Part shown: positions 6,317 to 52,444 of the stretch, piece after piece
Layout: each line of letters begins with the position of its first letter
How positions within the stretch are numbered: position 1 is the first letter of the stretch
NCBI RefSeq assembly: GCF_023008585.1
Contig: NZ_CP095390.1
Coordinates: 930,001-994,000, forward strand
DNA from: Natribaculum breve
GTDB taxonomy: Archaea; Halobacteriota; Halobacteria; Halobacteriales; Natrialbaceae
Length of the DNA: 64,000 bases
Reading direction: 5' to 3'
Program-made: the position numbers and the translations under genes
The notes under the pieces: model-generated
Database searches by the model: none
Seen by the model: the letters and a program-made list of their open reading frames with translations, nothing else
What the model was told of the DNA's origin: nothing

Positions 6317-6500
6317 CCGCCACCACCCGATCGACGTCGCTTTACCCCAGGCGGGGACGACGGATTCACAGCACAGACACGCAAGTAGTCGGATCGTTTC
6401 AGTAGTTGCATATCTCGGCGTTACTGCCCGAGGTTATTATATCACCACGATACACTCTCGAGTGAGTGATACGCTGACAGGCACACGGATCGCGACCGAA

Positions 6501-6911: not shown

Positions 6912-6969
6912 GGTGGTGGATTGTGCGCGATTCTTTAAGCATTTATGTACTGCTACTGAACGGGCACCT

Positions 6970-7605: not shown

Positions 7606-9054
7606 TCAGCTGTTTTTCACGTCGACTTCGTGTTTGGCGACGTTGAGGTAGGTCAACTGAGGCGGGAGTGCATACCCCTCCGGATAGAGATCGATGTCAC
7701 TGTCCCGAAGATTCTCGTCGTATTCGAAGTCGATAGCGGCTGCATGGGCCTGTACCGACGAGGCGATGATCGAGCCGTAGAAATTTGGATTCGAGTGGAG
7801 ACAGACCTGATAGCTGCAACTATTCCGCTTCTCCCAGTTGTCTTTATCACTTGCGGCGTAGAGCAGCCCCTCATACCGGGACTTGCCACCGGGACCGAAA
7901 TCGACCTGCATCTCTGAGGTCCCGTAGAGTTGTATCACTTTTCCGCTCACGTCCTTCCCGCACGGCTCGATACAGACGTCGCCAGTGTTACTAGCGTCGT
8001 AGTCTCCCGTCGCATAGATTTTGAGCGTATTGTTATCTTCGTAATCTGTAACTGTTATTGTCGATCCATCTGCTATTATATCCCCATCGACGATGAGCGT
8101 CGCATTTCCTTCCGAGAGGTCAAACTCGAGATGACCCCCATCGATTTTGTCGGCAATGTGAGTCCCATTTGAGAGGTTTTCGTACCCATCGACTGTCCCG
8201 AGGTCTCTGTCGACGTCGAGATCGCCGTTTTCTGTACTATTGACAATGTCGTAGATCACTGGGTCGAGAGGCTGGAACGATCCCCGTTCCGCTTCGTCGA
8301 TGTTATCGTGCTTGTCGTTAAGAGCGTCAGAAAACGTTACGCCAGAACCAAACGTCTCTTCGAGTTTTCGGTAGCCAAGTTCGGCCGTCACCGTCTGATT
8401 TTCGTGATCGACGTCTCGAATAACCGGCTCGCCCGCCTGTCGTTCGAAGTACGCCTCCCAGCCACGGTAGTACTTGCTCGTGACCGTAATGCGGACCGAA
8501 TCGTTTTCGACGATGCTGGCGTTCCTGACGGGATCGGTGAACTCGTGACTGATCGTGACGTCACCGGCGTTGAGTTCGGTTTCACCGCTCACCGTGACGA
8601 CCGGAAACGAGAGACTCTCCGCGTCTTCGTCGTAGTGTATCGGCGGTGCTGACACGATTCGAGTCTGGTTGCCGGTTTCGCGGAAGACGGCACCAGCCTG
8701 GTAGGCGAGTCTGGTTCCGTCGTCGGCTTCGTACTCGATGGATCCGATCGAGAGAGTCTCGTTCACGTCACCGCCTTCGATACGGATGTTCCCGGTATCT
8801 TTCTTGACGATCGCCCCCCTCTGGTCCACCGAGAGATCGATCGACTGCGACGCGTCGCTACTCGTCGACGTCGTCGCCATCCGCTGACTCAACTCGACGA
8901 ACGCCTGCTCGACGCGTTCGTTTTCGGTCTGCTGCTGGACGTCAGACGTCGCCTGTCCTGCATAGACCATCAACCCGACGGAGCCGATCGCCACGATCCC
9001 GACGAGTAAGACGACTCCGAGAACGGCAGTCTGCCCTCGAGATGACTGGTCCAT
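7606..9054 (-). CDS. Pilin-like single-pass secreted protein (archaeal DUF7289-like)
   Basis: 482 aa. The N-terminus is SSRGQTAVLGVVLLVGIVAI: a short polar stretch, a QT(A/S) turn and one hydrophobic helix (about residues 9-30), as in archaeal class III-type pilin-like proteins, followed by a long acidic extracytoplasmic domain rich in beta strands and Asn-X-Ser/Thr sites. It probably stays anchored by the N-terminal helix and faces outwards. A region (ENQTVTAELGYRKLEETFG) precedes a C-terminal part with Cys pairs. Its ATG overlaps the stop of a 10-codon leader ORF (TAATG). The family name is tentative; the topology is clear. Confidence 0.65.
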   Translation of the reverse strand: MDQSSRGQTAVLGVVLLVGIVAIGSVGLMVYAGQATSDVQQQTENERVEQAFVELSQRMATTSTSSDASQSIDLSVDQRGAIVKKDTGNIRIEGGDVNETLSIGSIEYEADDGTRLAYQAGAVFRETGNQTRIVSAPPIHYDEDAESLSFPVVTVSGETELNAGDVTISHEFTDPVRNASIVENDSVRITVTSKYYRGWEAYFERQAGEPVIRDVDHENQTVTAELGYRKLEETFGSGVTFSDALNDKHDNIDEAERGSFQPLDPVIYDIVNSTENGDLDVDRDLGTVDGYENLSNGTHIADKIDGGHLEFDLSEGNATLIVDGDIIADGSTITVTDYEDNNTLKIYATGDYDASNTGDVCIEPCGKDVSGKVIQLYGTSEMQVDFGPGGKSRYEGLLYAASDKDNWEKRNSCSYQVCLHSNPNFYGSIIASSVQAHAAAIDFEYDENLRDSDIDLYPEGYALPPQLTYLNVAKHEVDVKNS

Positions 9055-9086
9055 TACCAGTCACCACCGCCACTCCTCGCTCTCAT
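9054..9086 (-). CDS. 10-aa leader mini-ORF upstream of the pilin-like gene
   Basis: Encodes MRARSGGGDW; the TAA shares one base with the next ATG (TAATG). Within it GGTGGTGA acts as a plausible SD for the pilin-like gene. A TATA-like ATATAAA (9113-9119 on the plus strand, reading TTTATAT on the coding strand) lies about 29 bases upstream of its ATG, as for a leaderless transcript. Confidence 0.4.
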   Translation of the reverse strand: MRARSGGGDW

Positions 9087-39757: not shown

Positions 39758-41461
39758 TCAGACCTCGAATCCCCAGTTGAAGTCGCCCTTCCAGTCTGAC
39801 CGCGCGCCGGCGAAGTTCGTCTCGCCGTAGTGGCGGTTGCCGGTCCACAGGACGTTCGAGAGAGTCGTGTCGTCGTCGCTCGTCACGAGCGCCCGGAAGA
39901 TCGACCGGTCGACGGTGTGATCCGCGCCGTCGTCGGAAAACCGGAGGCTCGCGACGTCGGCGTCGACCTCGCAGTTGTCGAGGACGAGTCGATCGACGGC
40001 GTCGCCTCGAGCGTCGACGAAGATTCCGTTGCGACTCGCCTCGGACTGCGAGGCGTGGTCGAACGAACAGTCCCGGAAGACGACGTTCGACGAGCGGACG
40101 TACACCGCGTAGTCGGAGACCGTCGGACTCGAGCGGTCGGTGATCGTACAGTTCTCGAACGTCGTTCGCGTCGCGGCGTCGTCGCTGACGCGGATCGCCC
40201 GTCCGTCACCTCCGTCGTCGGTGACGTGGACGTTCGACAGATGGGCCGGACCGGCCTGCGTACAGCGGACGATCTCGGTGTTCTTCCGGACGTGATTGAT
40301 GCAGTAGAGGCCGTCGACGACCTGTCCGGCACCGGAAATTTCGCCGTCGAGCCAGAGCCCCGCCCACGGCTGGCCCGGATGCTCGTCCATTACGACCTTG
40401 GTGTTGAGAATCGCGTCGTTCGGCCCGATCCGAACGTTCGCGCCGGCATTGTTGTGTGCACGACAACCGACGACGAGGTTCCGCCCGGAGTTGTTCGAGA
40501 CGTAGATCCCGTTGTCGAGAAACCCCGAAACCTGGCATTGTTCCCAGATGTTCGTTCCCGTGTGGTAGATCTCGGCACCGAAGGGGATCGCGTGACCGAC
40601 GCCCGTGTCTCGCGACTCGTAGTTCGTATCGCCGTGGGTGAATCGAACGTTCCTGATCGCGTTCGTCGCCTCGGGACGAATGCCGTCGACTTTCAGCGTG
40701 TGTCGGTCACCACCGTACTCGGGGTTGAGCCTGTCGCGTCGCCCGCGGAGTTCGACGTTCTCGACGTGGCCGTACCCGTAGGTGTGCCACCGTCCGATAC
40801 CGGTGTCGTACTCGCCGCGAATGTCGACGCGGAGGTTCTTCATCACCGTCCGCTGGGCGTGCGGGAGCGACTCGTCGATCGTCCCGACGGTCATCATGCG
40901 GTCGACGTCCTGATCTGTGACCTCGAGCACGGCGAACGGCTCGCCGACGACGCCGAAGTACTCGTGTGCGAACAGTTCGATGTCGTCGGTCTCGACGTAC
41001 CACGTCCCCGACGGAATCACGTACTCGTGACAGCGGTCGGTCGGGTCGTCGAACGACGAGTAGTGGTCGTAGATCGCCCCCCAGACGTCGTCCCGTTCGG
41101 ACTCGACGCCCAGGTCGGCACGCACGTCGACGACGTGCGGATTCGTCGTGGAATCGCCGTCGGCGTCGATTCGCACGCCGGCGTCGCTCTCGACGGCCGA
41201 GAGCCCGTCGGCGAAGTCGAGGTGGGACACGCCGTCAGCGACGGTCGTCCCCGAATCGGCGACCGTCAGTCGTCGCGGGTCGGCTCGCTCGTCTTGCTGT
41301 GCGGCGACGACGCCCGATCGGTCACCGGTCGCGTACGCGCTGACGAGTCCGGCACCACCGAGTGCTCCGAGCACTCGCAGGTACGATCGTCGCGGGACGC
41401 CGCCACTGTCGCCGTCGCTACTGTCGCTCGTCTGCTGTCGGCTCCGATGCTTGTCGGCCAT
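39758..41461 (-). CDS. Tat-exported right-handed beta-helix protein
   Basis: 567 aa. The Tat motif is RRSYLRVLGALGGAG (~24-38) after a polar N-terminus. From ~150 onward the sequence has regular strand-turn repeats with Asn ladders (NLVVGCRAHNNAGANVRIG, FENCTITDRSSPTV, LDNCEVDADVASLRF), as in pectate-lyase-like parallel beta-helices that bind or cleave surface polysaccharides. No catalytic triad can be identified with certainty, so it may be a carbohydrate lyase, epimerase or surface protein. Confidence 0.75.
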   Translation of the reverse strand: MADKHRSRQQTSDSSDGDSGGVPRRSYLRVLGALGGAGLVSAYATGDRSGVVAAQQDERADPRRLTVADSGTTVADGVSHLDFADGLSAVESDAGVRIDADGDSTTNPHVVDVRADLGVESERDDVWGAIYDHYSSFDDPTDRCHEYVIPSGTWYVETDDIELFAHEYFGVVGEPFAVLEVTDQDVDRMMTVGTIDESLPHAQRTVMKNLRVDIRGEYDTGIGRWHTYGYGHVENVELRGRRDRLNPEYGGDRHTLKVDGIRPEATNAIRNVRFTHGDTNYESRDTGVGHAIPFGAEIYHTGTNIWEQCQVSGFLDNGIYVSNNSGRNLVVGCRAHNNAGANVRIGPNDAILNTKVVMDEHPGQPWAGLWLDGEISGAGQVVDGLYCINHVRKNTEIVRCTQAGPAHLSNVHVTDDGGDGRAIRVSDDAATRTTFENCTITDRSSPTVSDYAVYVRSSNVVFRDCSFDHASQSEASRNGIFVDARGDAVDRLVLDNCEVDADVASLRFSDDGADHTVDRSIFRALVTSDDDTTLSNVLWTGNRHYGETNFAGARSDWKGDFNWGFEV

Positions 41462-41721
41462 TGGCAGTCGAGCTGGATGACTGTCACACGATTTGTTATA
41501 TACGGGTTGCTACCGATAGCCGGTCGGTACGGCCGTCATACGTCCACGACGGTTCCGTTGCGAAAGAACACACGGACGAAACGATCCGGTAAGAGCCGGA
41601 TTACAAAGACGCCGCGTCGCCACTCACCTCTCGCCCGCTCGACGACGATCGCGGGCGATTCCCACCCCCTCACCACCTCCCGACCCGGATCTTTTCGTAC
41701 GCTGCGTCGCCAACCCCGAGT

Positions 41722-41928
41722 ATGGAGTTTCGACAGCGACTGGTCGTCGGTGCACTCTGGATCGCAGTCGCGGCCGTGATGGCGAGTACGCTCGAGTCGG
41801 CGGTTCCGTCCTCGGCCGACGCAGCCGCACGGCTGTTCGTCGTGATCGTGGCGCTGTTTCTGGCGGGCGTCTACCTGCTGGATCCGAAAAACGTGATCAG
41901 TCGGGGGCCGTTCTCCGGCGACGAGTAG
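41722..41928 (+). CDS. 68-aa small membrane protein
   Basis: Two hydrophobic helices (~7-24 and ~36-53) and a short C-terminal SRGPFSGDE. No known motif. Monocistronic, between the beta-helix gene and the citramalate synthase gene; the preceding ~260 bases hold no other gene that I can support. Confidence 0.65.
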   Translation: MEFRQRLVVGALWIAVAAVMASTLESAVPSSADAAARLFVVIVALFLAGVYLLDPKNVISRGPFSGDE

Positions 41929-42018
41929 CGAGCGCTGGTACCCTCCCGAGCGTCGACTGCACGGTCGAATCGACCCGCACCGCCGGATTCGACCCTGCAG
42001 TGCAGGCTCGAGACGCCA

Positions 42019-43545
42019 CTAGTCGTCTGCCGGCACCGTCAGGTCCCGTTCGTTCTCGAGTAAGCGGTCGAGCGCGTCGACCATCGCCTGGACGCTCGCG
42101 CGGGTGATGTCGCCCTCGCTTCTGGCGACGGTGACGCTGCGGTCGTCGCGGGACATCGTCACCTCGACGGTGACGACGGCGTCGGTGCCGCCGGTGACGG
42201 CGTCGACGTGGTAGGAGTCGAGTTCGGCGTCGGCGGCCGACCCGAGCGCCTCGCGGACGGCGGAGACGGCCGCGTCGACCGGGCCGGAGCCGGTTCCGGC
42301 GGCGACGCGTTCCTCGCCGGCGACGTCGAGTCTGACGCTGGCGGTCGGGACCGCGCCGCCACTGGTCGCGGTGAGGTCGCGCAGTTCGACGGTTCGCTCG
42401 CGGTCGTCGCCGGTGACGTCCTCTGCGATCGCGAGCAGGTCGGCGTCGGTGACCCGCCGACCGCGGTCGCCGAGTTCGGTGACTCGAGTGGCGATTTCGG
42501 CGATCTCGTCGTCGGTCGCCTCGACGCCGTGTTCCTCGAGCGTGGCCTCGACGCCGGCACGGCCGGTGTGTTTGCCGAGGGCGAGCCGTCGTTCCCGGCC
42601 GACGGTCTCGGGTGCGTAGGGCTCGTACATCTTCTCGTCTTTGAGCGTGCCGTCGGTGTGGATGCCGCTCTCGTGGGTGAAGGCGTTCTCGCCGATGACC
42701 GCCTTGTTCGGGGGGAGCGCGACGCCCGTGGTTCGAGAGACGATCTGTGCGAGGTCGTACACCTCCTCGAGTTCGAGCGTCTCGACGCCGTAGACGTGCG
42801 AGAGGGCGATCGCAACTTCCTCCAGGGCGACGTTGCCGGCGCGCTCGCCAAGCCCGTTGACGGTACAGTGGACCATGTCCGCGCCGGCGGCGATCGCGGC
42901 GAGTGCGTTTGTCACACCGAGTCCGAGGTCGTCGTGGGTGTGGGCGCTTACGGGCCCGAGTTCCGCCAGTCGCGAGACGGCCTCGTAGGTCCGGTCGGGA
43001 CCCGTGTGGCCGACCGTGTCGGCGAAACAGATCCGATCCGCGCCGGCCTCGAGTGCCGTCTCCATCAGCTCCTCGAGGTAGTCGAGGTCGGCTCGCGAGC
43101 CGTCCTCGCCGATGACCTCGACCCAGAGGTCGTTGTCCTTCGCGTACGCGACGAGTTCCGCGGTCGTCTCGAGGTTGCTCTCGCGGGTCGCGCCGACCTT
43201 GTCCTCGACGTGGCGGTCGCTCGCCGGCACGACGAGGTGGATGCCGTCGACGTCACAGTCGAGTGCGAGGTCGACGTCGTTTTTCAGTCCGCGACAGAAG
43301 CTCGTCACTCGAGCGTCCAACTCGAGGTCGGTCACGCGGGAGATGCCCTGGCGTTCGCCGGGACCGGTGCAGGCGCTGCCGGCTTCGATCACGTCGACGC
43401 CGGCACGCTCTAGCGCGCGGGCGATCTCGACTTTCTCATCGGGTGACAGCGAGACGCCTGGCGCTTGCTCACCGTCGCGAAGCGTCGTATCGAGCAGTTT
43501 AACAGTCCGATCGTCGTCTCCGTCGAGTCCGTCACGGCCTACCAT
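42019..43545 (-). CDS. 2-isopropylmalate/(R)-citramalate synthase family protein
   Basis: 508 aa from the ATG at 43545 ([19 protein letters not shown]). An HMGL-like TIM barrel with [14 protein letters not shown] (~17-30), metal-binding [16 protein letters not shown] and [10 protein letters not shown]; then a C-terminal LeuA dimer/allosteric domain. The family condenses acetyl-CoA with 2-oxoisovalerate or pyruvate (leucine or isoleucine synthesis). Which substrate is used is not readable; haloarchaea often carry the citramalate version (CimA). It follows a leader ORF (43559-43639). Confidence 0.88.
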
Positions 43546-43558
43546 GAAGGAGTGAGAA

Positions 43559-43639
43559 TCAGTTTCGGGGGCGAATTTCTCGGCCAGCCGCCTTGCGGCG
43601 ACTTCCTCTATCCTCCACAGTGGGCGTATCTCGTGCCAT
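43559..43639 (-). CDS. 26-aa leader mini-ORF before the citramalate synthase gene
   Basis: Starts MARDTPTVEDRGSRRK and ends IRPRN. Its stop lies 13 bases before the main ATG. It contains the hairpin gccgc-aag-gcggc. A TATA-like TATAAAA (43666-43672) lies about 30 bases upstream, so this ORF should be the leaderless start of the transcript. It is Arg-rich and has no Leu/Ile/Val run, so classic attenuation by those codons is unlikely. Confidence 0.4.
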   Translation of the reverse strand: MARDTPTVEDRGSRRKAAGREIRPRN

Positions 43640-43665
43640 GTGTAGGGCGACGTTGTACCGTCTCC

Positions 43666-43672
43666 TATAAAA
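43666..43672 (-). promoter_or_regulatory. TATA box of the citramalate synthase transcript
   Basis: The plus strand reads tataaaa, so the coding strand reads TTTTATA, 27-33 bases before the leader-ORF start at 43639. Confidence 0.5.
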
Positions 43673-43751
43673 CGGCGTTGGCTAGACAGATATTTGCCGA
43701 CCACGGGAGCGGAACACCCATCCCCGATCCCGTCGTATCGTCGTCACGATC

Positions 43752-44312
43752 ATGGACAGGAAGCTTCGGCCGCTCGCACGCTCGCTTCGCGACGCACCCG
43801 TCGTCGGTCGAGACGGATACGAGTACTTCGTCCACGGCGTGACCGACGGCATCCCGCCGGTCGAGCCGGCCGTCATGCACGCCGTCGTCGACGGCATTCG
43901 AGCCCGCGTCGACCTCGACGACGTCGAGAAGATCGTCGCCCCCGAGGCGATGGCGATTCACCACGCGACGGCGCTCTCGCTCGAGACGGAGATCCCGTTC
44001 GTCGTCGTCCGCAAGCGGTCGTACGGCTTCCCCGACGAGGTCGCCGTCCACCAGGAGACGAGTTACGGCGAGAGCGACCTGCACTTAAACGGCGTCGAGG
44101 CCGGTGACAGGGTCTTGCTCGTCGACGACGTGCTCTCCTCGGGCGGCACGATCAGGGCGGTCTGTGCGGCGCTCGAGGAAGCCGGCGCGGAACTGGTCGA
44201 CGTCGTGGTCGTCTTGCGCCGAATCGACACCGACCCCGGCGACCTGCCGGTCGACGTGACGTCTCTGCTCGACGTGAAAGTCGAAGACGGATCTGTCGTC
44301 GTCTCCGACTGA
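43752..44312 (+). CDS. hpt: Hypoxanthine/guanine phosphoribosyltransferase
   Basis: 186 aa. Salvage of hypoxanthine and guanine with PRPP. The PRPP-binding motif VLLVDDVLSSGGTIRA (~121-136) and an upstream VAPEAMAIHHATALSLE are present; length and the start MDRKLRPLARSLRDAPVV match archaeal Hpt. Monocistronic, divergent from the citramalate synthase gene. Confidence 0.93.
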   Translation: MDRKLRPLARSLRDAPVVGRDGYEYFVHGVTDGIPPVEPAVMHAVVDGIRARVDLDDVEKIVAPEAMAIHHATALSLETEIPFVVVRKRSYGFPDEVAVHQETSYGESDLHLNGVEAGDRVLLVDDVLSSGGTIRAVCAALEEAGAELVDVVVVLRRIDTDPGDLPVDVTSLLDVKVEDGSVVVSD

Positions 44313-44339
44313 TCCGTACCGCCGGTCGGAGACCGATCG

Positions 44340-44687
44340 TCACTCCTCGAGGACGAGTCGATCGCCGACGGCGACGTTCGCCGTCGCACCCGCAGGGAGT
44401 TCGACGATCAGGTCGGCCTCCTCGCGGGCGTAGCCGCGCCAGGGTCGGAGCCGTTCGACCCGGCGGACGACGCCGTCGACGACCCAGACGACGTCGATAG
44501 GAAAGAAAACGAACAGCATGTGGACGTCGCGCGTTCTGGCCGTCGCGAAGCGAAAGGCCAGCGCGTAGTCGTCGGGGATCGACCGCCGGAACGTCAGGCC
44601 ACGGACCTGGCTCGCGAGCGAGTCGGCCGTCTCGACGTCCGTCGCCAGCACCTCGCGGTCGCCGTCCGGATCGCAGACGAGTCGCAC
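44340..44687 (-). CDS. DUF192 family protein
   Basis: 115 aa. Characteristic blocks: ADSLASQVRGLTFRRSIP, LAFRFATARTRDVHMLFVFFPIDVVWV and RPWRGYAREEADLIVELPAG. Soluble here (no signal peptide), compact beta fold. Function unknown. The gap 44688-44886 holds no gene that I can support. Confidence 0.9.
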   Translation of the reverse strand: MRLVCDPDGDREVLATDVETADSLASQVRGLTFRRSIPDDYALAFRFATARTRDVHMLFVFFPIDVVWVVDGVVRRVERLRPWRGYAREEADLIVELPAGATANVAVGDRLVLEE

Positions 44688-44886
44688 GGTCTCGGGTCAG
44701 TGCGGGCAAGTAAAAACGTTCCCGTCGGAGGGTCCCTCACCGTGCCCGCTACGTTAGGCTAGACGTGTATCAGTTCTCGGTAATCCTAGTCCGTTTTTCA
44801 ACACCTTATGATGAAAGAAAACCCTCGAAAATTTCGACGTCCGACATCTTCGACGGTTATTGTATAGATTCAACATTATAGATCAC

Positions 44887-45120
44887 CTATTCGTCACAAA
44901 TTGCCCCCCGAAGCTCTTTGTACAAATCAGGGTGGTATTCCTCTAGAATTTCGGCATCTTCCTCCAGTTCCTCAATTCTCTTTCGGATCCGACTCGCAGC
45001 CTCGTACCGCTTGCTGTCCGGCACGTCGGCTTCGCCAGTAATTCGTTCACGATCTGTCGCCGTCATGACGGCTCTGTATTGTCCCATATCTGGGTTTACG
45101 GGAACCACACACTTGGACAT
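44887..45120 (-). CDS. 77-aa accessory protein with a helical C-terminus
   Basis: From the ATG at 45120 (MSKCVVPVNPDMGQYRAVM). The C-terminal half is a charged helix ASRIRKRIEELEEDAEILEE followed by YHPDLYKELRGAICDE. The type is common in haloarchaeal plasmids and proviruses; function unknown. It is lower in GC than the flanking chromosome and starts just before a cluster of dyads that could be its operator, which suggests self-regulation as in an antitoxin-like gene (inference). Confidence 0.6.
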   Translation of the reverse strand: MSKCVVPVNPDMGQYRAVMTATDRERITGEADVPDSKRYEAASRIRKRIEELEEDAEILEEYHPDLYKELRGAICDE

Positions 45121-45149
45121 TAGCACCTATGGCCATGAGATTGGCTATG

Positions 45150-45175
45150 TAGCTAATGTTAGCTATAAAGCTAAC
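45150..45175. promoter_or_regulatory. Overlapping TAGCTAA dyads, probable operator
   Basis: Two overlapping perfect palindromes: tagctaa-tg-ttagcta (45150-45165) and gttagct-ataa-agctaac (45158-45175). A further tagctaa lies at 45200-45206. They sit between the divergent accessory gene (start 45120) and the cassette starting at 45285, so they may control both. Confidence 0.6.
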
Positions 45176-45284
45176 TTTTATGTGATGTGGTGAGCATAGT
45201 AGCTAATGTGGGGCGTGGGATACCGGTCAGAAGTTGGCCGGAGCGTGCTGGAGCACGCCCGACCGCGCTTCCAGACAAGGAAGC

Positions 45285-45497
45285 ATGCCAATGAAGACAT
45301 CCGGCGGACTTCAGCGTTCCGCCACGACGGACGAATCGACCGACAGATCCTGGGCCAAAGGTCTCACTCCCAAGTTCGGCAAGCACGGGAATACGACGGG
45401 CCACGACTACTTCCGCTGCACCAGTTGTGGCGTCGAAGCGATGCGCCGCCTTGGTCCCCGCGACAATGGATGTAACTGCGGCGAGGCACCACAATGA
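45285..45497 (+). CDS. Small zinc-ribbon protein, first gene of the HRAMP-like cassette
   Basis: 70 aa from the ATG at 45285 (MPMKTSGGLQRSATTDES). Two Cys pairs, FRCTSCGVEAM and GCNCGEAPQ, form one zinc ribbon. The central WAKGLTPKFGKHGNTTGHDY is a distinct block. Role unknown; nucleic-acid binding is plausible. Its stop overlaps the start of the next gene (ATGA, 45494-45497). Confidence 0.6.
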   Translation: MPMKTSGGLQRSATTDESTDRSWAKGLTPKFGKHGNTTGHDYFRCTSCGVEAMRRLGPRDNGCNCGEAPQ

Positions 45498-45808
45498 GTC
45501 TCCCCGAGCCGACGGACGTGATCGCGCCTCGTGAGGACGTCCCGTACTCGACGTTCGACTTCCTCACGCAAATGATGGAGGGCGCGTATCCCCACGGTAT
45601 CGCTCTCGAGTACCACGATTTGGTGCTGATCAGCCAGGTCGACGACGCCCAAATGACGAACGTCTGGTACGTCCACTCGGAGGACGGGTCGATGATCGAG
45701 TCACTGAATCTCGACGCCTTCCGGACGGCCACCGAACTCGAGGAGACGCTCGACGAGAGCGTGGCCTACGATCCAGCTGACCGTGAGGAGTGGGTGAACA
45801 GCCGATGA
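45494..45808 (+). CDS. 104-aa conserved accessory protein of the cassette
   Basis: Starts MSLPEPTDVIAPREDVPYST. Acidic and soluble, with a likely alpha/beta core (GIALEYHDLVLISQVDDAQM, TNVWYVHSEDGSMIES). No known catalytic motif. It overlaps both neighbours by four bases, so the three genes are co-translated. I do not recognise the family; the position between a Zn ribbon and a TnpB-like nuclease in an HRAMP-like cassette is the only functional hint. Confidence 0.6.
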   Translation: MSLPEPTDVIAPREDVPYSTFDFLTQMMEGAYPHGIALEYHDLVLISQVDDAQMTNVWYVHSEDGSMIESLNLDAFRTATELEETLDESVAYDPADREEWVNSR

Positions 45809-46464
45809 GCAGCACACCGCTCCCCGCGACGACTTCCCGAGACCGAACACTGGAACCCACGCCGGTCGGTGTGGATGTCGGGGTGAAGAATCTCGTCGCT
45901 GCGGCCCCAACAAACGGCGACTTGGAGGCGGCGCTGGTGATCGAGGGCGACCACGTTCGGAAGCGTCACGAAACCCTCGTCGAGGCGATGCAAGCACTCC
46001 AAGGCGCGAAATTCGACACCGCAGACGGGCAGACTCAGCTGTTCGCGGCACTCTGGCACCAGATCCGACCGCAGGTCTACGATGCCGCTGTCCGCGTCGT
46101 TCGCTACGCTCAGGGATTCTCCGCGCCAACGCTCGTGCTCGAGGACCTATCGTTCTGCGAGGCGACACTGTGGGAACGTCGGACGGCCGACGATGTCGGG
46201 ACGTGGTTGCTCCCGGCCCTCCAGCACGCGATTGCACTGAAAGCACAGGAGGTCGGAATTCCCGTGACGTATGTCAATCCGAAGTACACGACCCAGCAGT
46301 GCCACGTCTGTGGCTGTCTCGGTCGCCTCGAGAACGACACGCTGGAGTGTACAACTGAGGATTGCCCCGTCGGCACCGTGTGCCGCGACCGAAGTGCCGC
46401 TGTGAGTATCGCCCAGCGAGTTGACCGCGAAGGGATGACCGAGGTGATCGGTCATCATGATTGA
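45805..46464 (+). CDS. Compact RuvC-only TnpB-like nuclease
   Basis: 219 aa from the ATG at 45805. It carries the catalytic core of TnpB/Cas12-type RuvC nucleases without the N-terminal REC and wedge domains: RuvC-I PVGVDVGVKNLVAA (Asp ~24), RuvC-II LVLEDLSF (Glu ~114), the helix LLPALQHAIALKAQEVGIPVTYVNPKYTTQQC, a zinc ribbon CHVCG...CTTEDCP, and RuvC-III VCRDRSAAVSIAQ (Asp). All three acidic residues are kept, so it should be active. Length is about half that of an ordinary TnpB. It is co-translated with its neighbours rather than sitting in an IS605 element, so it looks recruited to the cassette. Confidence 0.75.
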   Translation: MSSTPLPATTSRDRTLEPTPVGVDVGVKNLVAAAPTNGDLEAALVIEGDHVRKRHETLVEAMQALQGAKFDTADGQTQLFAALWHQIRPQVYDAAVRVVRYAQGFSAPTLVLEDLSFCEATLWERRTADDVGTWLLPALQHAIALKAQEVGIPVTYVNPKYTTQQCHVCGCLGRLENDTLECTTEDCPVGTVCRDRSAAVSIAQRVDREGMTEVIGHHD

Positions 46465-46930
46465 GGACATCGACCGCGACGTGTTCGTCCGGATTCAGAC
46501 CGATCTACTTGTGGTCGGCGACAGCATCATGACCGATCGACATCACGCCAGCAACGGTAATTACGAGGACGACGACCCACAGAACCAGATCGGCGGGATC
46601 ATTCCGGCGTTCCCGCTCTCTGGCTGGCTACGCCATGGGATGGAAGAGATCGTCCAGGAGTACGGCGGCACCGCCTGCCATCCCGGTGAGGCGAACGCGA
46701 ACTTTCGCAAGGATGGCGTCTACGGTCGCGATCTCGAGGTTGGCTACCACGAGAAGGGCGCGTGTACCGACGATCCGAAGGAAGACGACGGGTGTGTCAT
46801 CTTCGATCTCTTCGGTGGCTTCGGCGGCGTTCCCGGCAAGGTGATGCGCCGTCCGATCAAGTTCAATCCAGTCCGCAACAGCGTGGACTACACGCGCGGG
46901 CAAGCTGAAGGCCACTACCGACGGCTGATA
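46457..46930 (+). pseudogene. Cas7/RAMP-like (HRAMP) gene truncated by an IS630-type insertion
   Basis: Begins with ATG at 46457 (MIEDIDRDVFVRIQTDLLV), overlapping the previous gene by 8 bases. The 158 codons left contain RAMP-like blocks: IGGIIPAFPLSGWLRHGMEEI (compare the IPgsSLrGalR motif of Cas7) and CVIFDLFGGFGGVPGKV (compare the FGs glycine loop). I read this as the diverged Cas7 of the haloarchaeal HRAMP systems, which also have a Cas5-like gene, a conserved unknown and assorted nucleases but no CRISPR array. The rest of the protein is lost at the IS (frame continues artificially to 47080). Assignment is by motif reading only. Confidence 0.6.
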
Positions 46931-46973
46931 CTGTCAGCCAAAAATATTTCAAAGAAAAGCACGTTACTCCGAT

Positions 46974-47519
46974 ATGACCTCTCTCGACAACGTCTCTACC
47001 GAAGACCTCCGCCAGGCCTTGGCGGAGGTCGAGGGAAAAAAGCCATCACAACGGCTCATGGCGGCGATCAATTACCTTGAAGAAGACGGTGCAACGCTAC
47101 AAGAGGTCGCTGAACGCTATGGATACACTGCTGGCTGGCTCTCGCGGTGGCTTGATCGACTCGAACGGCTCGCCGACGAGCCGTTCGAGGAGGTCGTCTA
47201 CGACGAGCACCGTTCAGGAAGGCCCTCAAAACTCTCCGACAAAGAGCATGAACAGTTCGTTGAAGCGCTTCACAAGTCTCCAGAGGAAGTTGGACTTGAC
47301 GCGCCTGCGTGGTCCGTTCCACTAGCTCGTCACTATCTCGCCGAGGAATTCGACGTTGAGTACAGTGAGCGTCACGTTCGACGATTGATGACCGAGGCCG
47401 GGCTGTCCTGGAAGACAGCCCGGCCGGAGTTTCACAAATCCGATGAGAGAGCACAGGAAGCATGGCAAGACGGGTTCAAAAAAAGCGCGACAACCTGGAC
47501 GACGAATACACGATCTTAG
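46974..47519 (+). CDS. IS630 transposase, frame A (DNA-binding part)
   Basis: 181 aa (MTSLDNVSTEDLRQALAEV). The helix-turn-helix LQEVAERYGYTAGWLSRWLDRLE is followed by a linker RSGRPSKLSDKEHEQF and a second HTH-like region SERHVRRLMTEAGLSWKTARP. It shares 47462-47519 with frame B, which is in the -1 frame. A run of seven A's (47478-47484) at the junction is a likely slippage site to make the full transposase. Confidence 0.8.
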   Translation: MTSLDNVSTEDLRQALAEVEGKKPSQRLMAAINYLEEDGATLQEVAERYGYTAGWLSRWLDRLERLADEPFEEVVYDEHRSGRPSKLSDKEHEQFVEALHKSPEEVGLDAPAWSVPLARHYLAEEFDVEYSERHVRRLMTEAGLSWKTARPEFHKSDERAQEAWQDGFKKSATTWTTNTRS

Positions 47520-47995
47520 CCATTGATCAGACGCGACAGGTTCTCTCGACACTGATTCACGCATGGTTTCCCAAGGGTGAGCGCCCGTCACTCCCGGTGA
47601 CGGGCGCGTGGGACAGCATCAAACTTCTCGGTGCAGTCAGCGATACTGATGAGACGTTCTTTCTCCCCTGCGAAGAGAACTTCAACAGCGACACGACGAT
47701 TCGTTTTCTGGACGCTCTCCAGACCGAGTTCGGCGAGAAAATCTGCGTTGTCCTCGACAACGCCTCGTATTTCACGGCGAACAGAGTCCAAGAGTTCGTT
47801 GAAGGTACTCCGATCGAACTGTGTTACCTTCCGCGGGGTTCACCAGAGCTGAACCCCGCGGAAGAGTGCTGGCGACAACTCGATCAATCACTCGGCAACC
47901 GCCTATTCGAAACGCTTGACGAACTTCGTGATGCTGCTCTCTGTGCACTGGACGAGATCAACGTGCCAGATGTCTTTACGTACTTATGTCCGTGA
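47462..47995 (+). CDS. IS630 transposase, frame B (DDE catalytic part)
   Basis: 177 aa. The DDE triad is visible: ILAIDQTRQVL (first Asp), CVVLDNASYFTANRVQEF (second Asp) and SPELNPAEECWRQL (Glu). It would normally be expressed as a fusion with frame A through a -1 shift at the A7 run. The TGA is at 47993-47995, just before the right end of the element. Confidence 0.8.
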   Translation: MARRVQKKRDNLDDEYTILAIDQTRQVLSTLIHAWFPKGERPSLPVTGAWDSIKLLGAVSDTDETFFLPCEENFNSDTTIRFLDALQTEFGEKICVVLDNASYFTANRVQEFVEGTPIELCYLPRGSPELNPAEECWRQLDQSLGNRLFETLDELRDAALCALDEINVPDVFTYLCP

Positions 47996-47998
47996 GTA

Positions 47999-48378
47999 TA
48001 AGTGAGGCTGATTCAAGCAGTCAGTGTCCTGAGTGTGGAAGTCGTGATGTGGGTCGGGATGGTGACTCGTTCCGGTGCCATGACTGCGAATTAGATGCAC
48101 ATAGTGACGTAGTAGGGGCGTGGAACGTATTGCGGTCGGAAGTTGGGCCGATGGCACGGCCTGCCGCCCTCTCCGCTGAACGCGATAGGGACGCACCCGA
48201 ATCAGGGGCGTACTGGGAGTGGAATGGGCATGACTGGATACCCGCGAGTTTTGGGGAACAGTCATGTCCAGGTGACCAAACCAGCGTCGGCAAACCCGCA
48301 AGTTCACAGCCGGGGTAGTCTGCTGGCCGGATTGCCCACGGAGGAATCCCACGGCTTCAGCCGTGTGGAGGATGTCAA
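47999..48378 (+). mobile_element. Remnant of an IS605/IS1341-type TnpB gene with its right end
   Basis: The frame to 48318 gives the C-terminal zinc ribbon (QCPECGSRDVGRDG, RCHDCELDAHSDVVGAWNVL) and the tail EVGPMARPAALSAERDRDAP and WNGHDWIPASFGEQS, a well-known haloarchaeal TnpB end. The nuclease core upstream is missing, cut off at the IS630. Downstream a hairpin cccacggcttcagccgtgtgg (48348-48368, printed here as ends only) and gatgtcaa (48371-48378) match the right end of such elements, where the guide (reRNA) scaffold is encoded. Confidence 0.65.
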
Positions 48379-48689
48379 GACCGGTCAGCGCTCGAGTATC
48401 CTCGAGGAGCGATCCGGGGATTGTCTTCGAGGAAGTAACGGATACTGGCGCTGGTGAATCGTACGACAGCCCCGACTTGAGCCGTCGCGATCAGGGAGTC
48501 GAAGCGGGAAACGGCGGATGCTCGCCGTCCGAAATCTCTCGCCTCACCGGGAAAGCTGTGACGGTGGCTGAAAATCCAAGTGGATGGCACACCGCCCGCG
48601 ACGGCGTCGTCGCGGCTTCGCCTCCTGTCACCGTCCCGATCCGGCCCGCTTCGAAACCCACAAGCGATGGGGAACCGAACCCGCGGGCA
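48379..48689. other. Gap between the island and the RNA methyltransferase gene
   Basis: About 310 bases with no supported gene. A short minus-strand frame near 48375-48520 (DSLIATA...SASIRYF) faintly resembles the end of a PIN-domain toxin, too weak to call. The methyltransferase promoter must lie near its right end. Confidence 0.4.
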
Positions 48690-49598
48690 ATGGAGCCACT
48701 CGAGCGGTACCGACCGATCGTCGACGACTTCGAGGCCTTCCTCGAGGCGTGTCGGCGACCGCTCGGCAACGCCGTCCGCGTGAACACGATCAAGGCGAGC
48801 GTCGAGCGGGCGACGGCCACGCTGGACGAGGAGGGCGTCGAGTACGAGCAGGCGGCGTGGAACCCGCGGGTCCTGCGTCTCGAGACCGACTCGCCGGGGT
48901 CGACCTGGGCGTCGTACCACGGGTTCACGCACGGACAGGAGGAGGTGTCGGCGGTGCCGCCGGTCGTCCTCGACCCCGAGCCAGGCGACCGGGTCTGGGA
49001 CGCCTGTGCCGCTCCGGGCGGGAAGACGACCCAGCTCGCGGCGCTGATGGACGACCGGGGAACCGTCGTGGGCAACGACAGCAACCTCGGGCGACTCTCG
49101 GCGCTGCGGTTCAACGCCGAACGCCTCGGTGCGACCTCGATCGCGGTGACCAACCAGGACGCGCGCAACTTCTCGATGAAGCCCCTCGCGTTCGACGAGT
49201 TCGACCGGTCGCTCGTTGACGCGCCGTGTTCCTGCGAGGGAACGATCCGGAAGAACCCCGACGCGCTCTGTGACTGGTCGGTCGATCACGTCCAGTCCGT
49301 CTCGGGTATCCAGAAGGGGATCCTTCGGCGGGCGGTCCAGGCCACCCGCGAGGGCGGTACCGTCGTCTACTCGACTTGCACGTTCGCTCCCGAGGAGAAC
49401 GAGGCCGTCGTCGACTACGTCCTCGAGGAGGAGGACTGTCGCGTCGTCGACGCCGACGCCGACCTCGAGTACGCGCCCGGACTCACCGAGTGGGACGACG
49501 AGGCGTACGACCCGAGCCTCGAGCGGGCGATGAGAATCTACCCACACCACAACGACACGGGCGGCTTCTTCGTCGCGAAACTGGAGGTGACCGCCTGA
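48690..49598 (+). CDS. RsmB/NOP-family RNA (cytosine-5) methyltransferase
   Basis: 302 aa from the ATG at 48690 (MEPLERYRPIVDDFEAF). SAM-dependent m5C methylation of tRNA or rRNA. SAM motif I VWDACAAPGGKTTQLA (~105), the proline-Cys motif VDAPCSCEGTIRKNP (~168) and the nucleophile motif VYSTCTFAPEENEAVV (~221) are present. The N-terminal region resembles the RNA-binding part of NOP2/Sun proteins. The stop and the next ATG overlap by one base (TGATG). Confidence 0.9.
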   Translation: MEPLERYRPIVDDFEAFLEACRRPLGNAVRVNTIKASVERATATLDEEGVEYEQAAWNPRVLRLETDSPGSTWASYHGFTHGQEEVSAVPPVVLDPEPGDRVWDACAAPGGKTTQLAALMDDRGTVVGNDSNLGRLSALRFNAERLGATSIAVTNQDARNFSMKPLAFDEFDRSLVDAPCSCEGTIRKNPDALCDWSVDHVQSVSGIQKGILRRAVQATREGGTVVYSTCTFAPEENEAVVDYVLEEEDCRVVDADADLEYAPGLTEWDDEAYDPSLERAMRIYPHHNDTGGFFVAKLEVTA

Positions 49599-50134
49599 TG
49601 GCGGACGACGCGGAGGACCTCGAGGAGAACGTCGGCCAGCGCTTCGATCGGCTGCCGGCGACGACCGCCGAGCGGACCGTCGAGGGGCGGGTGAGTCGCG
49701 CGGAGGTCCTCGAGTACTTCGAGGATCGGTTCGGCATTCCGCCCGCGACCTTCGACGACCACACGTTCTGGGAGAAAGGAGCCGGAAAGATCTGGATCTA
49801 CGCGGGCGAGTCGCCGTCGCCGGTCGAACTCGAGGCGCTCGGGATGACCTGTCTCCGGACGCGCCAGGAACACTGGAAGCCGACGACCGACTTCGTCCAG
49901 CGCTTCGGCCGGCACGCGACCGACTGCGTGATCGACCTGACCCACGAGCAGGCGCGGCGGTTCGTCGCCGGCGAGGACCAGGACCTCGAGTGGGACGGCG
50001 ACTGGGGGTACCTGATCGCCGCCCACAGGGTCGCAGGCGAGTGCGAACCGCTCGGTGTCGGACTCTACCTCCACGGCGAGTTGCGCTCGCTGGTGCCGAA
50101 AGGGAGACGGCGCGACCTCGACGGTCGGACGTAG
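49598..50134 (+). CDS. PUA-like partner of the RNA methyltransferase
   Basis: 178 aa from the ATG at 49598 (MADDAEDLEENVGQRFD). The N-terminal half has an FDDHTFWEKGAGKIWIYAGE block; the C-terminal half is PUA-like (DWGYLIAAHRVAGECEPLGVGLYLHGELRSLVPKG). In bacteria the equivalent C-terminal domains are fused to RsmF methyltransferases; here they are a separate gene translated with the enzyme, so the pair is probably a split RsmF-like unit (inference). Confidence 0.75.
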   Translation: MADDAEDLEENVGQRFDRLPATTAERTVEGRVSRAEVLEYFEDRFGIPPATFDDHTFWEKGAGKIWIYAGESPSPVELEALGMTCLRTRQEHWKPTTDFVQRFGRHATDCVIDLTHEQARRFVAGEDQDLEWDGDWGYLIAAHRVAGECEPLGVGLYLHGELRSLVPKGRRRDLDGRT

Positions 50135-50197
50135 CGGATCGGTCCGACGGAACGTCGCCACAGGGTATCTTGTACGTCGACGTCGTACCGTCGTGAC

Positions 50198-51091
50198 ATG
50201 AACCGATCCATCGAGTCGGTCCTGATCCCCACCGACGGGAGCGAGGGCGCACTCGCCGGTGCGAGGCGGGGGATCGACCTCGCGAGTACGGTCGACGCCG
50301 ACGTCCACGTCCTCTCGGTCGTCGACGTGACTCACGCCGCCGAAGCCCTCGAGTTCGACGGTGACGGGCAGTCGCCGCTCGAGCGCGAGGCCGAGCGAGC
50401 GGTCGACGCGGTCGCGGCGCTCGCCCGGGACGCGGGCGTCGACGCCACCACGGCACTCGAGCGCGGCGTTCCGTTCGAGATCATCGGCGCGTACGCCGAC
50501 GAGCACGACGTCGACGTCGTCGCGATGGGGACGAAAGGCCGGACGGGCCTCGAGCGGGTCCTGCTCGGCAGCGTCACCGAGAACGTCCTCCGGACGACGA
50601 GTTCGCCGGTGCTCGCGGTCCCGCCGGCGGCGGGCGACGCGCCGGCAGGCGGCTACGACTACGACGACGTTCTGTTGCCGACCGACGGGAGCGAGACGGC
50701 AGCGGTCGCAGTCGAGTGGGGCGTCACGCTGGCGGACGCGTTCGACGCGATGGTCCACGCGCTGTACTCGGCCGACACGAGTCGGCTGGTGAGCGGCGAG
50801 GGAGCAGACGAGATCTTCGAGGCGCTCGAGTTACGGGGGAAGGGTGCGCTCGCGACGGTGCGAGAGCGCGCGCTCGAGGCGGACGTCAGCGTCACGGGAA
50901 CGGTGGCCAGCGGGCCCCCGTCGCGGGTGATCCTGACGTACGTCGAGGACGAAGACGTCGACCTCGTCGTGATGGGCACTCACGGCCGGTCGGGCGTCAA
51001 GCAACACCTCCTCGGGAGCGTCACCGAGAACGTCGTCCGCAGCGCCACCGTGCCCGTATTCTGCGTGCCGATGGCCGACGGAGAGCCCTAA
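50198..51091 (+). CDS. Tandem-domain universal stress protein
   Basis: 297 aa with two UspA domains (~1-145 and ~150-290). Both carry the nucleotide loop: GTKGRTGLERVLLGSVTENV and GTHGRSGVKQHLLGSVTENV, matching the G-2x-G-9x-G-S/T pattern, so ATP binding is likely. Start MNRSIESVLIPTDGSEGA. Monocistronic. Differs from the other Usp genes in this window by keeping both loops intact. Confidence 0.9.
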   Translation: MNRSIESVLIPTDGSEGALAGARRGIDLASTVDADVHVLSVVDVTHAAEALEFDGDGQSPLEREAERAVDAVAALARDAGVDATTALERGVPFEIIGAYADEHDVDVVAMGTKGRTGLERVLLGSVTENVLRTTSSPVLAVPPAAGDAPAGGYDYDDVLLPTDGSETAAVAVEWGVTLADAFDAMVHALYSADTSRLVSGEGADEIFEALELRGKGALATVRERALEADVSVTGTVASGPPSRVILTYVEDEDVDLVVMGTHGRSGVKQHLLGSVTENVVRSATVPVFCVPMADGEP

Positions 51092-51178
51092 TCGGCCGCG
51101 ACAATCCCATCAGATACGTTGGACGTCCATCAAGTGTTTTGCCCCGGTAGCACGTACCATAGCACTCGAGGGATCGAA

Positions 51179-52444
51179 ATGACAGACAAACCACACCAGA
51201 ACCTGGCGATCATCGGCCACGTCGACCACGGAAAGTCGACGCTGGTCGGCCGGCTGCTGTTCGAGACGGGGAGCATCCCCGAACACGTCATCGAACAGCA
51301 CCGCGAGGAAGCAGAAGAGAAGGGCAAGGGCGGCTTCGAGTTCGCCTACGTGATGGACAACCTCGCCGAAGAACGCGAGCGCGGCCTGACGATCGACATC
51401 GCCCACCAGGAGTTCGAAACCGACGTCTACTACTTCACGGTCGTCGACACGCCCGGCCACCGCGACTTCGTGAAGAACATGATCACGGGGGCGTCGCAGG
51501 CGGACAACGCCGTCCTCGTCGTCGCCGCGGACGACGGCGTCGCACCCCAGACCCAGGAGCACGTCTTCCTGGCGCGAACGCTCGGCATCAACGAACTGAT
51601 CGTCGGCGTCAACAAGATGGACGTCGTCGACTACGACGAGGACCGCTATCGCGAGGTCGTCGAGGAGGTCAAGGCCCTGCTCGATCAGGTCCGGTTCGAC
51701 ACCGAGGACGCGAGTTTCATCCCGATCTCGGCGTTCGAGGGCGACAACGTCGCCGCCCCCTCGGACAACACGCCGTGGTACGACGGGCCGACGATCCTCG
51801 ACTCCCTGAACGACCTGCCGGAGACGGAACCCCCGACCGACGCGCCGCTTCGCCTGCCGATCCAGGACGTCTACACGATCTCCGGTATCGGCACCGTCCC
51901 CGTCGGACGGGTCGAGACTGGCGTCATGGAGACCGGCGACACCGTCTCCTTCCAGCCCAGCGACGTCGGCGGCGAGGTCAAGACGATCGAGATGCACCAC
52001 GAGGAGATTCCCCGCGCCGAGCCCGGCGACAACGTCGGGTTCAACGTCCGCGGCATCGGCAAAGACGACATCCGCCGTGGCGACGTCTGCGGCCCGGCCG
52101 ACGATCCGCCGACCGTGGCACGGACCTTCCAGGCCCAGATCGTCGTCATGCAACACCCCTCGGTCATCACCGCGGGGTACACGCCGGTCTTCCACGCCCA
52201 CACGGCACAGGTCGCCTGCACGCTCGAGGCGATCGACCAGAAGATCGACCCCTCGAGCGGCGAGGTCGAAGAGGAGAACCCCGACTTCATCCAGTCGGGC
52301 GACGCCGCCGTCGTGACCGTCCGCCCGCAGAAACCGCTCAGCGTCGAGCCATCGAGCGAGATTCCCGAACTCGGGAGTTTCGCCATTCGCGACATGGGCC
52401 AGACGGTCGCCGCGGGTCGCGTGCTCTCGATCGACGAAGCCTGA
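51179..52444 (+). CDS. tuf: Translation elongation factor 1-alpha (aEF1A)
   Basis: 421 aa from the ATG at 51179 ([19 protein letters not shown]). GTPase motifs: GHVDHGKST (G1), RGLTIDIAH (switch I), [14 protein letters not shown] (G3), NKMDVVDYD (G4), and three-domain length. Most archaeal EF1A proteins have DCPGH at G3, here DTPGH. In many archaea the next gene is rpsJ; here the next gene is a convergent hydrolase, so this may be a relocated or second copy (inference). A longer start is rejected because the extension is not homologous. Confidence 0.93.

What the first reader, a model, noticed from the sequence alone, without database searches (positions are those of the whole stretch)
45285..46930. 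Remnant of an array-less, CRISPR-derived HRAMP-like system (Zn ribbon, 104-aa protein, RuvC nuclease, Cas7-like)
Four genes are chained by overlapping start and stop codons (ATGA at 45494 and 45805, 8-base overlap at 46457): a zinc ribbon, an unknown, a TnpB-like RuvC nuclease, and a protein with RAMP-type blocks PLSGWLRHGMEE and FDLFGGFGG. Haloarchaeal RAMP (HRAMP) loci were described by Makarova and co-workers as diverged Cas5 and Cas7 with a conserved unknown protein and assorted nucleases, without a CRISPR array, possibly for RNA-guided defence. Here the Cas7-like gene is interrupted and no Cas5-like gene is present, so this is a broken copy. Assignment is from motif reading; the overlap structure is seen directly.
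Basis: partly seen in the sequence, partly recalled or inferred. Interest (0 to 1): 0.85.

Follow-up and report, generated by a model that had tools for sequence, protein, structure and literature searches.

The report
Split transposon-borne CRISPR-like HRAMP operon
These genes are half of a CRISPR-derived, array-less operon of salt-loving archaea; intact relatives show that this kind of operon lies inside jumping genes with their own ends and transposase, and here it comes with the cutting half of a TnpB-type enzyme.

Summary
The 46457 frame is the first 157 residues of a 287-aa Cas7-like protein; intact relatives continue with a ~250-aa and a ~310-aa protein. Folds and profiles point to Cas7 (type III/IV/VII-like), a reduced Cas10 keeping an HD motif, and a Cmr3/Cas5-like protein. 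This copy was split, not merely degraded: an IS entered cas7, and a ~661-kb inversion between two identical IS copies moved the rest of cas7 and the two downstream genes to 312.8-315.0 kb of the same contig. A congener (Natribaculum luteum by plasmid coordinates) has the operon whole.

New here: this HRAMP class is carried by a transposon family. Terminal inverted repeats bracket the operon, and many copies encode an ISH3-like DDE transposase just inside the left end. A second HRAMP class, with HNH/PD-(D/E)xK-like and RNase-H-like nucleases, lacks such ends. The RuvC protein is TnpB's catalytic half without the RNA-binding half, under purifying selection; all 10 close relatives found (>=74% identity) adjoin HRAMP genes or fragments, all 13 more distant ones do not. 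I favour a mobile interference/competition module; RNA-guided transposition is possible but unsupported. The guide source is unknown.

The parts
44768..44798 (.). Left terminal inverted repeat of the HRAMP transposon (TATCAGTTCTCGGTAATCC...); the right one is at G000 contig 1 about 312763, beyond the inversion
   Evidence: Weight-matrix score 27.1 here and 32.5 for the right end in L113; 18 of the first 20 bases match between the two ends in the intact congener copy
44887..45126 (-). Divergent 79-aa protein of a halovirus-type family
   Evidence: phrog_26393 E 2.8e-22; homologues at the same place in other HRAMP elements and in provirus-like loci
45209..45287 (+). Conserved structured leader RNA ending at the start codon of the first gene, two alternative folds
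   Evidence: Alignments A1/A2; compensatory changes in the start-codon hairpin
45285..45497 (+). Zn-ribbon-like protein, 70 aa
   Evidence: Only sub-threshold hits (IS1/IS1595-type Zn domain E 0.014; InsA Zn ribbon E 0.022); homologues 55-100% in other HRAMP loci
45494..45808 (+). 104-aa protein of unknown function
   Evidence: No family above cut-off; homologues beside RuvC in other loci
45805..46464 (+). TnpB/Cas12f-type RuvC plus zinc ribbon, 219 aa, without the TnpB N-terminal half
   Evidence: Cas12f1-like_TNB E 1.4e-10; guided_TnpB profile positions 196-389 of 389 only; D24, E113, D195, C166, C169, C182, C187 invariant in 12
46457..46928 (+). N-terminal 157 residues of the HRAMP Cas7-like protein
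   Evidence: 87-100% identical to intact 287-aa relatives in most loci; fold of the full-length relative
46929..47998 (+). IS (IS630-like by domains, name recalled) with two overlapping transposase frames, interrupting cas7
   Evidence: HTH_33 E 9.1e-19 and DDE_3 E 1.4e-32; identical copy in L113; junction reading
47999..48318 (+). C-terminal fragment of another tnpB, whose N-terminal part lies beside the second IS copy
   Evidence: Cas12f1-like_TNB E 2.5e-9; L113 9904-11139 and junctions

Best explanation
Shown: this is the 5' half of a class 1 HRAMP operon (Cas7-like; a third protein with the fold of Cas10 and an HD motif; Cas5/Cmr3-like). That operon is the constant core of a haloarchaeal transposon family with terminal inverted repeats, whose fuller members carry an ISH3-like DDE transposase. 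In this genome it was broken by an IS in cas7 and separated by an inversion of about 661 kb between two IS copies. Inferred: the three core proteins form a small type III-like complex on guide RNA that comes from elsewhere. It binds foreign nucleic acid, and cutting is done by the Cas10-like HD domain and, in this sub-lineage, by a TnpB-derived RuvC nuclease encoded immediately upstream, the RAMP complex taking the target-finding role of the missing half of TnpB. The likeliest benefit is defence or competition between mobile elements. Here the complex should be inactive because cas7 is cut.
For: HRAMP genes; Cas7, third protein and Cas5 in that order in 25 of 31 named loci. Third protein: VIA-align Z 13.3 to Csm1 over its whole length, HD.HK in 24 of 24. 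Transposon: right repeat in 34 of 41 and left repeat in 26 of 39 unique class 1 loci with enough sequence, both in 18, transposase full in 14 and fragmentary in 12 of 39; no hit in 503,904 shuffled positions, one isolated weak hit in 17 class 2 loci, none in 6 provirus-like loci; empty site in G104. RuvC: catalytic residues, dN/dS about 0.2, 10 of 10 relatives at 74% identity or more beside HRAMP genes or fragments. Split: reciprocal halves of cas7 and tnpB around two identical IS copies. Cas7 co-varies with the third protein and Cas5.
Against: No guide RNA, target or activity is known. RuvC is in only 8 of 39 class 1 loci with 5 kb upstream and its more distant relatives never adjoin HRAMP genes (0 of 13), so it may be a passenger. 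The Cas10 assignment rests on folds alone: Foldseek best E is 0.096 and no profile hits. Left ends counted are any repeat hit more than 700 bp upstream of cas7, so a few may not be true ends. 13 of 39 loci lack a detected left end.
Confidence: 0.6

Rival explanations
1. RuvC and its neighbours are passengers. They belong to a swapped small-gene cassette of viral origin and do not work with the HRAMP complex, which uses its Cas10-like HD domain or no nuclease at all.
For: The cassette varies strongly (53 clusters of upstream genes in 35 loci, some of them host or IS genes). RuvC is in 8 of 39 loci. Distant relatives sit at the end of virus-like small-gene operons without HRAMP genes, some after the same kind of leader RNA (4 of 6).
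Against: In the close clade RuvC directly precedes cas7 with overlapping ends in several loci and is under purifying selection; 10 of 10 close relatives are beside HRAMP genes or fragments.
Confidence: 0.3
2. RNA-guided transposition: HRAMP class 1 steers the ISH3-like transposase to targets, an archaeal, type III-derived counterpart of CRISPR-associated transposons.
For: The HRAMP core lies inside the terminal repeats and is the most constant part of the element. Class 1 lacks the HNH and RNase-H-like nucleases of class 2 in 30 of 31 named loci; the one hit, L009, has a further Cas5-like gene at its edge. Transposase distances correlate with Cas5 (r 0.52, p 0.0008) and weakly with the third protein (r 0.30, p 0.02) in 12 elements.
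Against: Transposase does not correlate with Cas7 (r 0.11, p 0.15). No match between element and own flanks beyond that with other elements' flanks (19 elements). No array. Elements without transposase are common (13 of 39 with none).
Confidence: 0.12
3. TnpB-like retention: RuvC, guided by the HRAMP complex, cuts the empty donor site so that the transposon is copied back.
For: RuvC is of TnpB origin and lies inside a transposon.
Against: RuvC is absent from most elements and no flank-derived guide was seen at the ends.
Confidence: 0.08
4. The split is an assembly artefact: the two IS copies were joined wrongly and cas7 carries only an IS insertion.
For: The copies are identical over 1072 bp including flanks, long enough to mislead short-read assembly.
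Against: Relative order in the congener differs as an inversion predicts: the window's right flank is at 2.74 Mb on the minus strand, HRAMP at 3.38 Mb. The gene flanking the tnpB half has no counterpart in the congener, so the other breakpoint could not be tested.
Confidence: 0.12

Closest known systems
HRAMP, haloarchaeal RAMP (Makarova et al. 2019, fnz079: not held, recalled; passages read in PMC8730458 and PMC12669027)
   Same: Diverged Cas7 and Cas5, a conserved further protein, no array, haloarchaea, varied nucleases
   Different: Those passages do not mention transposon ends, a transposase, a TnpB-type RuvC, or the further protein as Cas10
CRISPR-associated transposons (CASTs; passages in PMC12669027 and PMC8730458)
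   Same: A reduced class 1 CRISPR effector inside a transposon
   Different: ISH3-like DDE transposase instead of Tn7- or Mu-like machinery; type III-like effector; no array or guide found; no evidence of guided insertion
TnpB / OMEGA nucleases
   Same: RuvC catalytic triad and zinc ribbon of TnpB
   Different: N-terminal RNA-binding half missing; no omega RNA identified; sits in a RAMP operon
Type III CRISPR-Cas (Csm/Cmr)
   Same: Cas7, Cas5 and Cas10-like folds
   Different: No array seen; third protein only ~250 aa and without GGDD in 23 of 24; one Cas6 family searched and not found in this genome
ISH3-family transposons of haloarchaea
   Same: DDE domain of the transposase matches the ISH3 model (E 4e-23 and 3.6e-35)
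   Different: Scores stay below the curated cut-off (82 and 121.5 of 225 bits); about 240 extra N-terminal residues; carries HRAMP

Membership tests
HRAMP | Cas7 homologue | tested here: met
   Csm3 profile E 1.9e-4; fold E 1.8e-7 and Z 11.4; tested on the intact congener protein
HRAMP | Cas5 homologue | tested here: met
   Cmr3 profile E 2.8e-7 on the congener protein; the window genome's own gene is at L113 6825-7811
HRAMP | Conserved further protein in the operon | tested here: met
   25 of 31 named loci have all three in order
HRAMP | No CRISPR array at the locus | tested here: met
   No regularly spaced repeat array in the window 40000-52000 or in three intact elements
HRAMP | Associated nuclease | tested here: met
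   RuvC here; RuvC in 8 of 39 class 1 loci
CRISPR-associated transposon | Cas effector genes inside transposon ends with a transposase | tested here: met
   for the family; the window copy itself lacks the transposase
CRISPR-associated transposon | Guide RNA that matches the insertion target | tested here: inconclusive
   No excess match between element and own flanks; distant guides were not tested
CRISPR-associated transposon | TnsB, TnsC and TniQ or Mu-type machinery | not tested
   No dedicated search; the transposase found is ISH3-like
TnpB / OMEGA | RuvC catalytic residues and zinc ribbon | tested here: met
   Invariant in 12 sequences
TnpB / OMEGA | N-terminal RNA-binding half | tested here: not met
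   Only positions 196-389 of the 389-position guided TnpB model are covered
TnpB / OMEGA | Omega RNA | tested here: inconclusive
   No Rfam match; a structured leader exists but looks cis-acting
Type III CRISPR-Cas | Cas10 | tested here: inconclusive
   Fold and HD motif agree; no profile match; GGDD in 1 of 24
ISH3 transposon family | Transposase above the curated ISH3 cut-off | tested here: not met
   82 and 121.5 bits against 225

The most novel reading that the evidence does not exclude
HRAMP class 1 is an archaeal, type III-derived CRISPR transposon: an array-less Cas7-Cas10-Cas5 complex that takes guides from the element's own or host transcripts and steers or polices its ISH3-like transposase, with a TnpB RuvC domain recruited in one sub-lineage as a hybrid of class 1 targeting and class 2 cutting.
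Probability: 0.12. Interest if true: 0.95.

Novelty: new variant of a known kind. Interest (0 to 1): 0.78.

Why it matters
HRAMP is a CRISPR derivative with no array, no known guide and no known role. Placing one class inside a transposon with defined ends and a transposase gives it a natural context and makes tests possible: transposition with and without cas7, and the RNA bound by the complex. Reading the uncharacterised protein as a reduced Cas10 with an HD motif gives the complex a candidate nuclease of its own and supports a type III origin. A TnpB catalytic half without its RNA-binding half, coupled to a class 1 backbone, would bridge the two CRISPR classes.

Tried and rejected
Guide at the ends: longest words shared by an element's right end, left end or whole interior with its own flanks average 9.2, 8.6 and 12.6 bases, against 8.9, 8.3 and 12.6 with other elements' flanks (19 elements). 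CRISPR array: none seen. Cas6: one family, PF10040, has no match in the genome (it rang in 2 of 14 control genomes). Rfam: two sub-threshold matches, neither at the leader.

The leader as an omega RNA relative: considered because both it and a tnpB 3' end here hold GGTCxGAAGTTGG. Dropped because it ends at the start codon, has a hairpin with compensatory change there, and also precedes 4 of 6 provirus-like RuvC operons. Its first model R1 was built on a mixed alignment with 8 pairs, so its hits are mainly sequence hits; pair counts use the 12-sequence alignment A2.

HRAMP in viruses: no Cas7 relative in IMG/VR by the short-pattern search. RuvC in annotated phages matches only ISH12/ISH1.8-type TnpB at 34-41%; three weak IMG/VR loci were not followed. 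PDB profile searches with the Cas7, Cas5 and third-protein alignments gave no credible hit. A second empty-site search, for G160, found none. The gene beside the tnpB half has no counterpart in the congener.

Results against my reading: the transposase correlates with Cas5 and weakly with the third protein though not with Cas7 (one of its 12 elements, L029, has a doubtful transposase 7 kb away). Of 24 transposase rows at E <= 3.5e-50, 15 are beside HRAMP genes and 9 are not; of the 9, G313 was not looked at, and two others (L166, L170) show a repeat pair without HRAMP genes between. VIA-align's own note warns that Z near 13 can be common for helical proteins.

Rows dropped: 6 duplicate loci; 26 of 53 upstream clusters (IS or host fragments, doubtful frames, and the mixed 104-aa/RuvC cluster, for which L016's 104-aa protein was put in) before the Pfam scan. 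L003's right end, with a one-base deletion, is missed by the scan and not added to the 34. The repeat matrix was trained on loci it then scored; the controls carry the weight. Parts of the outputs were cut; one search recounts what I use from them.

Full report
What is there. The four overlapping frames are real and at the stated coordinates. The first, a 70-aa zinc-ribbon-like protein, has only sub-threshold family hits. The second, 104 aa, matches no family above cut-off. The third, 219 aa, is the C-terminal half of TnpB/Cas12f: the guided TnpB model is covered only from position 196 to 389 of 389. The catalytic D24, E113 and D195 and four zinc cysteines are invariant in 12 homologues. The fourth matches a 287-aa protein over its first 157 residues. 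RuvC, the 104-aa protein and Cas7 are under purifying selection.

Why it stops. A search with the congener's full-length Cas7 found two matches in the window's genome: residues 1-160 here, and residues 157-287 at contig 1, 314593-314985, on the other strand, at 99% identity. The intact congener locus matches the window up to 46928 and resumes at the second place with a 3-base overlap. Both places carry the same IS, identical over 1072 bp including flanks. At the second place the IS adjoins the N-terminal part of a tnpB whose C-terminal part lies right of the IS in the window. The simplest history is one IS copy in cas7 and one in tnpB, then recombination between them inverting about 661 kb. 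Joining the halves on paper suggests 3-base target duplications, TGA in cas7 and TAA in tnpB. In the congener the window's right flank lies 640 kb from HRAMP on the opposite strand; the other flank has no counterpart there. The congener G246 can be named: its second Cas7 has the same coordinates as in the Natribaculum luteum plasmid NZ_CP095398.1. So the Cas5-like gene is missing from the window, not from the genome.

Which system. Of 31 named haloarchaeal loci, 25 have Cas7, a ~250-aa protein and a ~310-aa protein in that order; in the other six the call found only part of them. The Cas7 model (pLDDT 78.9) has only CRISPR effector complexes among the 50 PDB rows listed (best E 1.8e-7), and VIA-align gives Z 11.4 to type IV-A with 204 residues at 5.3 A. 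The ~310-aa protein hits Cmr3, a Cas5 (E 2.8e-7). This fits HRAMP as described in passages of two reviews (PMC8730458; PMC12669027). The primary paper of 2019 is not held.

The third protein. The passages I read call such proteins uncharacterised. Its model (pLDDT 85.2) gives weak but uniform Foldseek results: the first 28 rows are large chains of type III Csm or Cmr complexes, Csm1 (Cas10) where named, and unrelated proteins follow (best E 0.096). VIA-align aligns residues 11-260 to Csm1 with Z 13.3, 3.9 A over 236 residues, and all 50 rows listed are Csm1 or Csm complexes. R24, H25, D26, H28 and K29 are invariant in 24 homologues of both classes, and HD.HK is in 24 of 24. Cas10 has an HD motif near its N terminus (recalled). 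GGDD is in 1 of 24. I read it as a reduced Cas10 that kept the HD domain and lost the cyclase; no sequence profile confirms it.

Two classes. Of 391 genomes of the class, 105 have a Cas7 relative at E <= 1e-4. Full-length identities fall into a group at about 68-100% (class 1, the window's) and one at about 52-62% (class 2), with two loci near 31-35% counted with class 2 below. Of 17 class 2 loci, 15 have a relative of an RNase_H_2 protein, 14 of an HNH protein and 2 of a third protein that I take to be PD-(D/E)xK by eye (Pfam on two loci). Of 31 class 1 named loci only L009 matches any of these, and it has a further Cas5-like gene at its edge.

The transposon. Nucleotide similarity between class 1 loci ends sharply about 70-155 bp after the Cas5 match, at AATAAAGAAATCGTATTnnCAACAACTGnTA or a variant, beyond which the DNA differs between loci. 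The inverted copy lies upstream, e.g. L003 4851 and 10613, L010 3295 and 10660. A weight-matrix scan gave no hit in 503,904 shuffled positions, one isolated weak hit in 17 class 2 loci and none in 6 provirus-like loci. Of 47 unique class 1 loci, 34 of 41 with enough sequence have the right end, 26 of 39 a left end, and 18 of those 39 both. Just inside the left end many copies encode a 600-690-aa transposase, full in 14 and fragmentary in 12 of 39, ISH3-like though below the curated cut-off, with D321, D400 and E514 invariant in five sequences (that these are the catalytic triad is inferred). The window's ends are at 44768 and, beyond the inversion, at about 312763. In G104 the host genes flanking the window's element are contiguous, aligned through the insertion point at 70%; G223 and G060 have both flanks within a few hundred bases. 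HRAMP-bearing elements are 3.2-10.1 kb. TA flanks both ends in the 24 pairs listed, so a TA duplication is likely but unproven. Class 1 or 2 Cas7 is also on 21 plasmid records.

The cassette. The genes upstream of cas7 vary: 53 clusters in 35 loci, some of them host or IS genes. Pfam hits in 28 of these proteins include RHH, HicB-like, PIN, winged-helix and Tat-signal domains. RuvC relatives of at least 74% identity adjoin HRAMP genes or fragments in 10 of 10 cases, three of them in one genome. The 64% relative and 12 at 32-58% have no HRAMP gene nearby (0 of 13). Several of these lie at the end of small-gene operons with virus-type neighbours (L066 tape measure E 9.9e-9; L064 phrog_17897 E 1e-34). 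RuvC thus looks like a nuclease of virus-type operons that one HRAMP lineage kept and coupled to cas7.

The leader. A 78-95-base sequence ending at the first start codon can fold in two exclusive ways; compensatory change is strongest in the hairpin beside the start codon. It also precedes 4 of 6 provirus-like RuvC operons and, weakly, has matches in 3 of 17 class 2 loci. I take it for a control of translation; a role as guide is not excluded.

How it works. Shown: anatomy, folds of Cas7 and (less surely) Cas10, constraint, mobile unit, and the break here. Inferred: a small type III-like complex with guides from elsewhere, an HD nuclease in the Cas10-like subunit, and an added RuvC nuclease in this lineage, serving defence or element competition. 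Cas7 distances correlate with the third protein and Cas5 (r 0.89 and 0.68) but not with the transposase (r 0.11, p 0.15); the transposase does correlate with Cas5 (r 0.52, p 0.0008) and weakly with the third protein (r 0.30, p 0.02). No local guide was seen at the ends. I therefore favour carried interference over guided transposition, without excluding the latter.

Novelty. Searches of the held library for HRAMP, HRAMP with CRISPR, HRAMP with haloarchaea and Cas7, HRAMP with transposon and halophilic archaea, CRISPR-associated transposons with haloarchaea and Cas7, and two broader ones showed two CRISPR papers that name HRAMP. In the passages read, neither puts HRAMP in a transposon, pairs it with a TnpB-type RuvC, or calls its further protein Cas10. 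Passages of PMC4158269 name no RAMP. The primary paper could not be checked. HRAMP itself is known; I file this as a new variant.

Noticed in passing
window 45209-45287 and homologous leaders (alignments A1, A2): A structured leader RNA with two exclusive folds, shared by HRAMP class 1 operons and provirus-like small-gene operons, and absent from Rfam matches.
   Followed up: partly
L064-L069: Short TnpB-type RuvC proteins (36-58% identical) at the end of small-gene operons with virus-type neighbours and no HRAMP genes: apparently a virus-borne RuvC nuclease family.
   Followed up: partly
L166 4355-9277 and L170 5107-7938: Pairs of the same terminal repeats enclosing the transposase but no HRAMP genes: possible HRAMP-free relatives of the transposon.
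   Followed up: no
L010, L012, L080, L174 and L176 upstream of cas7: RHH/HicB-like and PIN proteins, possible toxin-antitoxin genes inside or beside HRAMP elements.
   Followed up: no
L129 and L130 (G069, G007): Cas7 relatives at 31-35% identity; L130 lies upstream of large helicase-like or nuclease-like proteins (by eye) and may be a third HRAMP class.
   Followed up: no
L165 (G212) 5502-9078: A weak RuvC relative within 2 kb of an HRAMP-type transposase but without HRAMP genes.
   Followed up: no
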